64,000 nt of DNA from Faecalicatena sp. Marseille-Q4148 (lineage in GTDB: Bacteria; Bacillota; Clostridia; Lachnospirales; Lachnospiraceae). The notes under the pieces were generated by a model. The model was not told where the DNA came from, made no database searches, and saw only the letters and a list, made by a program, of their open reading frames with translations. The stretch spans positions 2,058,046 to 2,122,045 of the forward strand of contig CP073692.1 of the NCBI GenBank assembly GCA_018228665.1, in the 5' to 3' direction. The position numbers and the translations under genes were made by a program. Of this stretch, positions 3,660-23,283 are shown piece by piece; position 1 is the stretch's first letter, and every line of letters begins with the position of its first letter.

Positions 3660-3851
3660 TCACATTGCTCTCTGAGAGCATCCATAAAATTTTGTTTCCC
3701 AATAGGGACGTGGAATCTTTCCACGAACTGCTACATATCCTTCCTTTTCCAATTCATCATTGAGTTGTTTCAGAATAGAATATGCCTTACTGCGTTTCAC
3801 GCCTAATTCTTCCATGACATCATCAACAGTCATCATATAATTAGTTCTCAT
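3660..3851 (-). CDS. Small excisionase-like HTH protein (63 aa)
   Basis: Small DNA-binding protein directly upstream of, and co-oriented with, the integrase, the usual place of an excisionase/directionality factor. The visible core is a helix-turn-helix of the MerR/Xis-like kind (MMTVDDVMEELGVKRSKAYS), followed by a basic C-terminal part. I chose the ATG at 3851 because AAAGGAGG lies just upstream; a longer frame to 3902 has no ribosome site. Its stop is about 13 bp from the integrase start, so the two are one unit. Function is inferred from position and fold. Without a working integrase its role may be lost. Confidence 0.7.
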   Translation of the reverse strand: MRTNYMMTVDDVMEELGVKRSKAYSILKQLNDELEKEGYVAVRGKIPRPYWETKFYGCSQRAM

Positions 3852-3867
3852 AGCGTCCTCCTTTCCA

Positions 3868-4015
3868 GTCACTTTTGTGACTCTTTTGGTATTTTCTATC
3901 ATAATTCACTTTTGTGGCTTTGTCAATAACCTTTTGCGAATTTAATTTTTATATTCCAAAGTGTTTTATAATCAGCTCTGAAAAAACAACCTCTTTCGCA
4001 TCATTCACTTTTGTG
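3868..4015. promoter_or_regulatory. Three operator-like repeats TCACTTTTGTG
   Basis: The divergent region between the xis/int pair and the XRE regulator contains three exact copies of TCACTTTTGTG at 3869-3879, 3906-3916 and 4005-4015. The first lies in a perfect palindrome GTCAC-tttt-GTGAC (3868-3881). They flank the starts of both transcription units, as expected for binding sites of the adjacent XRE regulator. Binding is inferred, not shown. Confidence 0.6.
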
Positions 4016-21224: not shown

Positions 21225-22112
21225 CTAATAATGAACCCACTTCTTGGATGCAACAAACTGTATCGCAGACAATCCTGCTGTAATCAAAATCATCACAACT
21301 GCTACCGCTGTTGCCTGTCCCATATCAAATTCTTCAAATCCAAGCTGATAATACATATAAAGAAGGGTTCTTGTACTTCCCGATGGTCCTCCCTGCGTCA
21401 GAATCTGGATCTGATCATAAGCTTGCAGAGAATTAATCATCGTAATAATCATTAAGAAAAATGTTGTCGGCGAAATGCACGGAATTGTAATATCCCGGAA
21501 CTGATGCCACCGATGTCCTCCGTCCATACCGCATGCCTCATACAATTCTGTCGGAACCTTTTCTAATGCTGATAAATAAAAAATCATCGAATATCCAATA
21601 CTTTTCCATACGGTCACAAGAATTACCGCAAGCATCGCTGTATCTGAACTCTGAATCCACGGAAGCCCCGGCAGGTGGAAGAAATTTAACACCGCATTCG
21701 CCATACCGCTTCCCGGTTCAAAGATCCACGTCCACACAATAGATACTGCTACTGTTGGTGTAATCCACGGGGAAAATAAAATAAACTTATAAAATCCACT
21801 TCCACGGAAATTCTTCCTCAACAAGAGCGCTAACAAAAGCCCTCCTACAAGTGTTGGTACAAGTGTTCCGATCGTAAATACAAGCGTATTGATTACCGCC
21901 TCATAGAACCGGCTGTCCTGAAACAACATCTTAAAATTATCAAGAAACACAAAATCATACTGTGGGCTCATATAGTCCCAGTTCGTAAAGCTGATCATAA
22001 TCGAACGACAGATTGGATATATCCAAAATACGACCAGCGGAATCAATGCAGGCATTACAAACAGAAATACATTTCCCGTATATCTGAGTTTCTGCAGTCT
22101 TTTCTCCTTCAT
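21225..22112 (-). CDS. Carbohydrate ABC transporter permease (UgpA/MalF type)
   Basis: Inner-membrane permease, 295 aa, first gene of the six-gene import operon (permease, permease, binding protein, PHP, HAD, ATPase). EAA region: VPTELYEACGMDGGHRWHQF. AAAGGAGAG precedes the ATG. The leader upstream holds an inverted repeat (22196-22220) that could regulate the operon. Confidence 0.92.
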   Translation of the reverse strand: MKEKRLQKLRYTGNVFLFVMPALIPLVVFWIYPICRSIMISFTNWDYMSPQYDFVFLDNFKMLFQDSRFYEAVINTLVFTIGTLVPTLVGGLLLALLLRKNFRGSGFYKFILFSPWITPTVAVSIVWTWIFEPGSGMANAVLNFFHLPGLPWIQSSDTAMLAVILVTVWKSIGYSMIFYLSALEKVPTELYEACGMDGGHRWHQFRDITIPCISPTTFFLMIITMINSLQAYDQIQILTQGGPSGSTRTLLYMYYQLGFEEFDMGQATAVAVVMILITAGLSAIQFVASKKWVHY

Positions 22113-22231: not shown

Positions 22232-22260
22232 TTGACAACTTTTTACTTTAATGATATATT
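22232..22260 (+). promoter_or_regulatory. Promoter of the small RNA upstream of the AbiF-like gene
   Basis: TTGACA (22232-22237) and TATATT (22255-22260) spaced by 17 bp: near-consensus sigma-A promoter. Transcription should begin at about 22267, directly before the structured RNA. Confidence 0.85.
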
Positions 22261-22266
22261 GATTTT

Positions 22267-22336
22267 AGTGGTTGCGCTGCGGAAACTTGCGATGCCCGCA
22301 GCCGGTGGAGTTCCATGCGTGGGCTCCACTTTTTTA
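22267..22336 (+). ncRNA. Structured ~70-nt RNA upstream of the AbiF-like gene, candidate RNA antitoxin
   Basis: Between a strong promoter and a terminator lies a compact GC-rich RNA in an otherwise AT-rich region. Stem 1: GCTGCGG (22276-22282) / CCGCAGC (22296-22302) with a 13-nt loop. Stem 2: GTGGAG (22305-22310) / CTCCAC (22324-22329), extendable by two G-U and one C-G pair, followed by six T (22330-22335), i.e. a rho-independent terminator. The AbiF-like coding region and its AAAGGAGG follow at once. AbiF-type HEPN proteins have been linked to adjacent small RNAs acting as antitoxins (my recollection, not checked). That role here is inferred from layout and structure. Confidence 0.7.
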
Positions 22337-22359
22337 ATAAACAAAGGAGGTTTCCCAAC

Positions 22360-23283
22360 ATAGAAAATACAATTTTTTTCACATATGATGAACAAATTCA
22401 AAAACTCATAAACGAAAAACAGCTTATTATTTCCGACCTTGAAACTACAAAAAGTATACTGCAAAAATTGAGTTATTTCTCATTAGTTGATAATTATAAA
22501 GATATATTTACACACAAACCATCCGGAAAATATTTGCACGGTGTCACTTTTGAAGAGATTACAGCTTTTTATTACTTTGATGAAGAATTGAGAATCCTTT
22601 TTCTAAAATATATATTACATGTCGAACAATATTTAAAATCTATGCTAGCCTACTATTTTTGTGAAAAACACGGCACACAACAATCCGCATATTTATCTGT
22701 TAAAAATTATAATTGTACCCCAAAAAATTTAAACCAAATAAATCATCTAATCACAACTTTGGTAAAAACCATTTCTTTACCCAGCCACTACCGCTATATT
22801 ATCCATTATGCAAAAACATATGACAATGTACCTTTATGGATAACTGTCAACGCACTTACATTCGGTCAAATTTCTAAAATGTATCAATATACTACTTCTG
22901 ATATTCGCAGTAAAATAAGTCTTAATTTTTCTAATATATCAGAAAGTCAACTACATCAGCTCATTCGTATTCTCGCAAACTGTCGAAATATATGCGCTCA
23001 TAATGAATGTCTTTATTCTTTTCAGATAAATGAAGCAATCCCTGATATGCCCTTACACAAAGAATTAAAATTACCACAGAAAAACGGACAATACTCAATT
23101 GGTAAAAAAGACTTATTTGCAGTAGTAATTGCCTTACGTTATCTAATTGACACCAAAGATTTTAAACAATTCAAAAAAGAACTTAACCAATTAATCCTTT
23201 CTGCTTTCAAAAATTGCCCGCATCTTACTCCGCAAGTACTATTTTCCAAAATGGGATTTCCAACAAATTGGAAAAATGTATAA
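22360..23283 (+). CDS. AbiF/AbiD-like (Abi_2 family) HEPN protein, about 307 aa
   Basis: Abortive-infection-type protein with a HEPN RNase fold. The family start FFTYDEQIQKLINEKQL, the mid-protein VPLWITVNALTFGQISKMY block and the catalytic-type R-x4-H motif RNICAHNE (residues about 209-214) are visible. AAAGGAGG (22343-22350) is ideally spaced for initiation at 22360, but that codon is ATA. The only upstream in-frame ATG (22315) falls in the loop of the RNA terminator hairpin. Translation from a near-cognate start, hence at low level, or a mutated start are the alternatives. It is alone on the plus strand between two minus-strand operons, AT-richer than its neighbours, which suggests acquisition as a defence/toxin islet. 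Likely role: RNA cleavage that arrests phage-infected cells. Confidence 0.82.
   Translation: MENTIFFTYDEQIQKLINEKQLIISDLETTKSILQKLSYFSLVDNYKDIFTHKPSGKYLHGVTFEEITAFYYFDEELRILFLKYILHVEQYLKSMLAYYFCEKHGTQQSAYLSVKNYNCTPKNLNQINHLITTLVKTISLPSHYRYIIHYAKTYDNVPLWITVNALTFGQISKMYQYTTSDIRSKISLNFSNISESQLHQLIRILANCRNICAHNECLYSFQINEAIPDMPLHKELKLPQKNGQYSIGKKDLFAVVIALRYLIDTKDFKQFKKELNQLILSAFKNCPHLTPQVLFSKMGFPTNWKNV

What the first reader, a model, noticed from the sequence alone, without database searches (positions are those of the whole stretch)
22232..23283. AbiF-like HEPN protein with a private, promoter- and terminator-bounded RNA: candidate RNA-antitoxin defence islet
Directly upstream of an Abi_2/HEPN gene (R-x4-H motif RNICAH) lies a ~70-nt RNA with a TTGACA-17-TATATT promoter, a 7-bp GC stem and a terminator stem with T6. 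It is the most GC-rich and structured part of an AT-rich islet. HEPN RNases in this family are toxic, and an adjacent structured RNA is the expected antitoxin; AbiF-type proteins have been proposed as relatives of the Cas13 ancestor (recollection). This single-gene plus-strand islet between two minus-strand operons fits a transferred defence module.
Basis: partly seen in the sequence, partly recalled or inferred. Interest (0 to 1): 0.8.

Follow-up and report, generated by a model that had tools for sequence, protein, structure and literature searches.

The report
Toxin gene with private RNA antitoxin
A bacterium, probably of the gut family Lachnospiraceae, carries a gene for an RNA-cutting toxin preceded by a small folded RNA that very probably keeps it in check; the pair is a new branch of a known phage-defence system, and look-alike copies of the RNA, without the toxin, sit in several phage genomes, where they could disarm it.

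Summary
At 22232-22335 there is a sigma-70-type promoter, a 69-nt RNA and a terminator, followed by a ribosome site and an Abi_2/HEPN gene (Pfam 152 bits; the only PDB fold match below E 0.001 is PbAbiF bound to its ncRNA). The RNA is conserved upstream of relatives (matches in 43 of 45 genome loci found by protein) with strong compensatory changes (42 distinct sequences, 97.0% of cells paired, 12 of 16 pairs double-changed). It works like, and by position and protein family is, an AbiF RNA toxin-antitoxin module, a kind already described (C. difficile AbiF/RCd22; PbAbiF). The RNA does not match Rfam abiF (RF03085) and looks like a separate class centred on one family. New here: (a) 23 of 73 strong genome matches have no Abi_2 gene beside them, yet those examined stay paired; (b) seven loci carry a second copy behind the gene; (c) six phage lineages carry the RNA with no Abi_2 gene found, two of them (related phages) inside a tRNA array with pair-preserving changes. 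Phage-borne antitoxin mimics of AbiF are the most novel reading. Toxicity, binding and transcription remain untested.

The parts
22232..22260 (+). sigma-70-type promoter, -35 TTGACA and -10 TATATT, spacer 17; probably shared by RNA and gene
   Evidence: a promoter of this kind ending 4-9 nt before the RNA start in 43 of 44 distinct upstream regions
22267..22335 (+). AbiF-associated RNA (69 nt, predicted transcript AGUGGUUG...U6), the inferred antitoxin
   Evidence: covariance model hit 88.0 bits (the window is in the training set); identical in L005 and L013, whose proteins are 71% identical to the window's
22276..22302 (+). hairpin 1: 7-bp stem with invariant inner C-G pair and loop core CUYGNGA (22286-22292)
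   Evidence: 7 stem pairs, 5 with changes on both sides, 97.2% of cells paired
22304..22335 (+). hairpin 2 with UGCG loop plus U6: intrinsic terminator, and probably part of the antitoxin, since stem and loop persist in phage copies without a U-run
22345..22350 (+). Shine-Dalgarno AGGAGG
22360..23283 (+). abiF-like gene, 307 codons from the ATA at 22360 (a longer frame from ATG 22315 overlaps the terminator)
   Evidence: PF07751 E 2.2e-44; PADLOC AbiD 5.2e-61; fold match 8vz6 E 5.8e-11; all three searches used the longer frame
22984..23001 (+). HEPN R-x4-H motif RNICAH, expected RNase active site

Best explanation
This is an AbiF-type (type III-like) RNA toxin-antitoxin module. One promoter makes mostly the short RNA, because transcription stops at hairpin 2. 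Occasional read-through gives the mRNA of the HEPN RNase toxin, translated from a site just behind the terminator. The accumulated RNA binds the toxin dimer through hairpin 1 (loop CUYGNGA) and probably hairpin 2, and holds it inactive. When a phage stops host transcription or degrades the RNA, free toxin would cut RNA and halt the cell. Shown here: gene family, fold, order, RNA conservation and covariation. Inferred from relatives: read-through, toxicity, binding, neutralisation, phage trigger.
For: Abi_2 at 152.4 bits against a cut-off of 25.6; the only PDB fold match below E 0.001 is 'PbAbiF dimer bound to ncRNA'. RNA structure: 97.0% of 665 cells paired, 12 of 16 pairs with double changes, 0 of 500 shuffles as high on any of five measures. 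In 30 loci found with the RNA model that have an open Abi_2 frame: 97.1% of 491 cells paired. Searching 299 genomes of the family with the RNA alone gave matches in 58; of 81 matches examined, 34 have an open Abi_2 frame downstream (33 genes, since L150 has two RNA copies), 11 a broken one, and 2 run off the contig inside one. The same layout (SigA promoter, ncRNA, terminator, read-through, SD, AbiF) was mapped by RACE in C. difficile, and that RNA neutralises its toxin (PMC12373285).
Against: No transcript, toxicity or binding data for this subfamily. The RNA is not RF03085 (control). The window has one RNA copy, whereas RCd22 has two motifs. The window gene lacks ATG/GTG/TTG at the homologous start, so it may be weakly translated or dead. 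30 of 81 genome matches have no Abi_2 gene beside them (23 of them at 40 bits or more), so the RNA may have other roles. All 17 more distant Abi_2 loci given to lack this RNA, so it belongs to a part of the family only.
Confidence: 0.85

Rival explanations
1. The RNA is only a cis-acting attenuator (riboswitch-like leader) of the gene and has no antitoxin role in trans.
For: It lies between promoter and gene and ends in a terminator.
Against: Copies persist with paired stems where no Abi_2 gene follows and behind the gene. Hairpin 2 keeps its stem and UGCG loop in phage copies without a U-run. The C. difficile counterpart acts in trans by binding the protein (PMC12373285).
Confidence: 0.08
2. 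The window's copy is a decaying remnant: the start codon is lost (ATA) and the gene is silent, while the RNA lingers.
For: No ATG/GTG/TTG in frame after the RNA in 4 of 69 typed loci, the window among them. Broken copies are common, 11 of 81.
Against: The 307-codon frame is open, with the HEPN residues and a perfect SD at normal spacing. Two relatives, L007 and L010, have ATC and ATT at the same place, also behind AGGAGG, and single-segment protein matches to the gene's end, which looks like tolerated near-cognate starts rather than decay. A 99% identical protein cluster has 21 member sequences.
Confidence: 0.12
3. The RNA is a guide that directs the HEPN nuclease to targets, as in Cas13.
For: AbiD/F is placed at the root of Cas13, and RNA-guided ability was suggested (PMC12165695, passages).
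Against: No variable guide region was seen: the RNA is conserved or covaries along its length, and the loop core is present in 56 of 57 matches listed (missing in L168).
Confidence: 0.03

Closest known systems
C. difficile AbiF(Cd)/RCd22 (PMC12373285: abstract, sections 7 and 12, first part of 13, passages)
   Same: Abi_2 protein with RNxCAH, upstream ncRNA with SigA promoter and terminator, read-through mRNA
   Different: RCd22 carries two RF03085 motifs; here one RNA copy of another structure; the window protein is about 27% identical to three listed Clostridioides phage relatives (phiCDKH02, phiC2, CD2301)
PbAbiF-AbiFr (PDB 8vz6; Zilberzwige-Tal et al., Cell 2025: not read, known through PMC12373285 and PMC12737573)
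   Same: fold (E 5.8e-11, TM 0.65-0.70); HEPN RNase; one ncRNA per monomer reported
   Different: 18% identity in the structural alignment; the RNA of 8vz6 was not available here, so RNA structures were not compared
Rfam RF03085 abiF RNA
   Same: small hairpin RNA upstream of Abi_2 genes
   Different: stem with 3' bulge CAAAUC; no match in the window even at E 10, while a Clostridioides phage control gives 26.6 and 19.5 bits
phiTE RNA mimicry against ToxIN (PMC3475682, search listing) and Racr RNA anti-CRISPRs (PMC10651486, search listing)
   Same: a phage RNA that copies a host defence RNA
   Different: other toxin or CRISPR families; here the target would be AbiF
abiF sRNA in cyanophage S-CREM1 (PMC9964418, passages)
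   Same: an abiF-class RNA in a tRNA-rich phage
   Different: RF03085 class; the passages I read give no decoy interpretation

Membership tests
Abi_2 / AbiD-AbiF protein family | PF07751 above curated cut-off | tested here: met
   152.4 vs 25.6 bits; PADLOC AbiD 204.8 bits
Abi_2 / AbiD-AbiF protein family | HEPN R-x4-H motif | tested here: met
   RNICAH; R224, N225, C227, A228, H229 invariant in 26 sequences
Abi_2 / AbiD-AbiF protein family | PbAbiF fold | tested here: met
   8vz6 the only match with E <= 0.001; model pLDDT 84.9
Abi_2 / AbiD-AbiF protein family | toxic RNase activity | not testable with these tools
   needs expression
AbiF-type RNA toxin-antitoxin (type III-like) | conserved structured RNA directly upstream of the toxin gene | tested here: met
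AbiF-type RNA toxin-antitoxin (type III-like) | RNA binds and neutralises the protein | not testable with these tools
   needs co-purification and rescue
AbiF-type RNA toxin-antitoxin (type III-like) | repeated antitoxin units (named a key type III feature in PMC12373285) | tested here: not met
   one copy in the window; the only adjacent tandem pair seen is in L150
Rfam RF03085 (abiF RNA) | match to the covariance model | tested here: not met
   no hit at gathering or E<=10; positive control L002
Phage-borne antitoxin mimic | structured antitoxin-like RNA in a phage without the toxin gene | tested here: met
   11 viral records (6 lineages) with matches >= 49.7 bits and no Abi_2; records may be fragments
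Phage-borne antitoxin mimic | relieves AbiF during infection | not testable with these tools
   needs a plating assay

The most novel reading that the evidence does not exclude
Phages carry solitary copies of this antitoxin RNA, some placed between tRNA genes and thus probably expressed and processed with them, as RNA decoys that keep host AbiF toxins asleep; bacteria also keep solitary or second copies that could blunt incoming AbiF modules.
Probability: 0.5. Interest if true: 0.82.

Novelty: new variant of a known kind. Interest (0 to 1): 0.62.

Why it matters
AbiF is reported as the ancestor of Cas13, and how its RNA changed from antitoxin to guide is named as an open question (PMC12737573, passage). 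A second, structurally distinct class of AbiF RNA would show that the antitoxin role does not depend on one fold, and gives a covariation-defined minimal RNA for structural work. If phages mimic it from tRNA arrays, that is a new RNA-based counter-defence, directly testable with two plasmids.

Tried and rejected
Alternative 5' stem (GGUUGYG/CRCAGCC), the choice of single-sequence folding: 92.9% of cells paired (6 of 500 shuffles as high), but pairs and cells with double changes are no more than in shuffles (325 and 251 of 500 as high), so not adopted. Rfam rteR and D12-methyl (17.0 and 13.1 bits, gathering 72 and 57) are taken as chance. An empty site was sought through the neighbouring peptidase gene in 397 genomes; the nearest (G255, 78% DNA identity) and the next three show none of three other window genes within the about 1.5 kb held on each side, so transfer could not be tested. 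Two searches of named phages with phage RNAs gave no match and one weak 28-nt match. A scan for the GUUGC-type core found no convincing RNA, best 17.7 bits. A pattern with the full 5' part found nothing. Weak genome matches L174-L180 (26-36 bits) were left out of the argument; L175, L176 and L180 look like an unrelated GC-rich repeat. Weak viral matches L183, L184, L204 and L226 (26-32 bits) are not counted among the six lineages; none of the four records has Abi_2 either.

Full report
WHAT IS THERE. The window holds, on the plus strand between minus-strand transport genes (the nearest begins at 22112) and a minus-strand M24 peptidase gene, a short islet of 31% GC (window 39.5%). In order: promoter TTGACA-17-TATATT (22232-22260), a 69-nt RNA (22267-22335) ending in a GC hairpin and six T's, AGGAGG (22345-22350), and an Abi_2 reading frame to 23283. 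The scan shows no promoter-like site between the RNA and the gene start, so RNA and gene probably share one promoter. The source is probably an unnamed Lachnospiraceae: named Abi relatives are Frisingicoccus, Tyzzerella, Eubacteriales and Lachnospiraceae bacterium, and the few organism-named peptidase relatives (56-60% identical) are of the same groups. No whole genome is held.

THE PROTEIN. Pfam Abi_2 152.4 bits, PADLOC AbiD 204.8 bits, no NCBIfam family. Of 1644 candidate proteins 1166 are related at E<=0.001; the 120 listed all carry PF07751. HEPN residues R224, N225, C227, A228 and H229 are invariant in 26 sequences. By sequence the only credible solved relative is 8vz6 (E 2.9e-12); by fold the AlphaFold2 model (pLDDT 84.9) has one match below E 0.001, 8vz6 'PbAbiF dimer bound to ncRNA'. 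In the C. difficile relative the R and H of this motif are needed for toxicity (PMC12373285, section 12).

THE START. The tool-listed ATG (22315) lies inside the terminator hairpin. Most close relatives have ATG where the window has ATA (22360), 9 nt behind AGGAGG. Of 82 downstream regions, 13 without the N-terminal motif were dropped; of the 69 typed (some loci come in twice, such as L006/L146, L014/L105, L037/L107), 63 have ATG/GTG/TTG with an SD, 2 without a recognised SD, and 4 have none: window ATA, L007 ATC, L010 ATT, L152 CTG. Near-cognate starts at an exact position behind a perfect SD suggest deliberately weak translation, but mutation cannot be excluded.

THE RNA. Protein searches gave 45 genome and 30 viral loci; their upstream DNA is listed (five loci skipped, the start of the gene not being matched). 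An RNA of this type was extracted from the window and 49 loci at 38% protein identity or more, 42 of the 50 sequences being distinct. In that alignment 97.0% of 665 cells form standard pairs, 12 of 16 pairs have changes on both sides, 77 cells have double changes (shuffled mean 15.2), and 0 of 500 shuffles reach any of the five measures; sliding the partners by 1-3 columns drops pairing to 32-48%. The structure was read off these sequences, so the slide control favours it. Hairpin 1: 5 of 7 stem pairs double-changed; in its loop C, U, G and G are invariant (CUYGNGA). A covariance model matches one copy in the window, 88.0 bits, and 52 of the 56 sources made up of the window and L001-L055, including 43 of the 45 genome loci; the misses are L002, L004, L040 and L048. 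All 17 other, more distant Abi_2 loci given to the same call have no match at E<=5, so this RNA marks one part of the family. In 30 loci with an open Abi_2 frame found through the RNA model (30 of 34 such matches; the four left out lie in loci with a second copy) pairing is 97.1%. At least four rows (L105, L106, L107, L121) repeat training sequences, and that alignment was fitted to the model, so this is only partly independent. The RNA is more conserved than the protein in the one case measured: L005 and L013 have the identical 69 nt with a 71% identical protein. The promoter layout holds in 43 of 44 distinct upstream regions.

NOT RF03085. The window gives no abiF hit at gathering or at E 10. 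A Clostridioides phage that PMC12373285 names as carrying RCd22 gives two (26.6 and 19.5 bits) in the same test, although neither it nor 19 other loci passes the gathering score. So this is a separate class by that test; a very distant common origin is not excluded.

ASSOCIATION AND SOLITARY COPIES. The RNA model alone hit 58 of 299 genomes drawn from the family of a Blautia genome (Lachnospiraceae by recalled taxonomy). In a draw of 398 from the phylum it hit 5: three strong, all three already in the family draw, and two weak (both searches used stricter filters that lose weak matches). Of the family matches, 81 were re-found and examined (the L081 match, beside an Abi_2 gene, was not carried over): 34 with an open Abi_2 frame of at least 250 codons downstream (at least one, L144, looks frameshifted near its start), 11 broken, 2 running off the contig, 3 with Abi_2 upstream only, 1 at a contig end, 30 with none (23 of the 73 at 40 bits or more; 7 weaker). 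Of the 23, L131 is the downstream copy of an Abi_2 locus cut off by an insertion sequence, and L116 is followed by what reads by eye as a truncated start of such a gene. The 20 genomes holding the other such copies (L131's left out): 11 have Abi_2 above cut-off somewhere, 9 do not, one of these with a weak broken trace; genomes may be incomplete. Solitary copies are not visibly decayed: in 27 (21 of the 23 genome copies plus 6 viral; 26 distinct) hairpin 1 is 100% paired, and all cells 96.6%, against 97.1% beside open frames; the loop core is missing in one, L168. Because they were picked by a structure model, decayed copies would be under-represented. Seven loci have a second copy behind the gene, all seven beginning UAUGGUUG, four without a U-run; L005 and L013 are two contigs of one genome.

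PHAGES. Seven pattern scans of IMG/VR returned 47 contigs; the model matches 19 at 46.9 bits or more, 4 at 26-32 bits, and the rest at 20.4 bits or less or not at all. Of the 19, eight carry Abi_2: five tested, and three contigs already found by protein. Eleven do not, including records of 163.5, 170.1 and 112.8 kb. Records may be fragments, and the scans select for one core sequence, so these are not prevalences. The eleven are six lineages: L196/L198, L247/L249/L250, L207/L213, L185, L248, L222/L223; the first two are related phages, and L222/L223 were not compared with the others. Phage genes near the RNA: terminase and portal (L196), terminase and exonuclease (L249), integrase and endolysin (L248), dUTPase and phosphoesterase (L185), phosphoesterase and an adenylosuccinate-synthetase-like protein (L207); L222/L223 rest on IMG/VR and on tail-like genes read by eye. 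In L198 and in L247, L249 and L250 the RNA sits between tRNA-Met and tRNA-Arg of an eight-tRNA array; L196 shows the cut end of the same array. These two phages are about 72% identical over 1.9 kb around the array, yet the RNA is 61 of 67 identical, more than six of the eight tRNA slots and the next gene part (67%). Of its six differences, two make one A-U to G-C double change, two are one-sided pair-preserving changes, one is in the loop and one in the tail. There hairpin 2 keeps an unbroken stem and UGCG loop but no U-run, so it is kept for something other than termination. The simplest reading is selection on the RNA in phages without the toxin: a decoy antitoxin, as known for ToxIN (PMC3475682, listing only). 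Alternatives: a remnant of a lost module, a regulatory role in the phage, or protection of the phage from a prophage-borne AbiF. The hosts of these phages are unknown here.

NOVELTY. The module kind is known (PMC12373285; the Cell 2025 paper was not read, only PMC12373285 and PMC12737573 about it). I found no description of this RNA class or of AbiF decoys in the held library (searches); subscription papers are mostly missing, and the Cell 2025 survey may include this class. Hence 'new variant of a known kind'. Words such as zeta-like, Phd-like and MNT/HEPN in the passing notes are readings by eye, not searches.

Noticed in passing
window 22360-22362; L007, L010, L152: Near-cognate start codons (ATA, ATC, ATT, CTG) at the homologous start of the toxin gene in 4 of 69 typed loci, with a perfect AGGAGG in the window, L007 and L010.
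   Followed up: partly
L001 1322, L005 1249, L006 3972, L013 1267, L019 2959, L030 3982, L031 5564: Second RNA copy behind the abiF gene (in L031 an insertion sequence lies between), with promoter-like sequence ahead of it in some, all seven starting UAUGG.
   Followed up: partly
39-70 nt ahead of the RNA start (regions): A CCACT box ahead of the -35, complementary to AGTGG at the RNA start, in 23 of 44 distinct regions (background about 2% per 32 nt; the loci are related, so not independent); not in the window. Possible operator; unexplained.
   Followed up: partly
L141, L108/L113, L155/L222/L223: Solitary RNA copies ahead of other toxin-antitoxin-like genes (by eye: MNT/HEPN pair, zeta-like P-loop kinase, Phd-like antitoxin).
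   Followed up: no
L150 248-308 and 316-382: Two RNA copies in tandem before an Abi_2 gene, like the repeats of type III antitoxins.
   Followed up: no
L184 ~230-340, L204 ~3840-3970: Two phage contigs share a longer similar stretch that ends in an RNA-like hairpin with the same loop core (26 and 32 bits).
   Followed up: no
L226 7477-7528: Weak solitary copy (27.5 bits) 13 nt behind a tRNA-Ser gene in a phage contig with terminase and portal genes.
   Followed up: partly
L081/L031, L098, L099, L101 (one Blautia genome, G008): Four separate abiF-RNA modules in one genome, proteins 38-57% identical to the window's; one (L099/L144) looks frameshifted near its start.
   Followed up: partly
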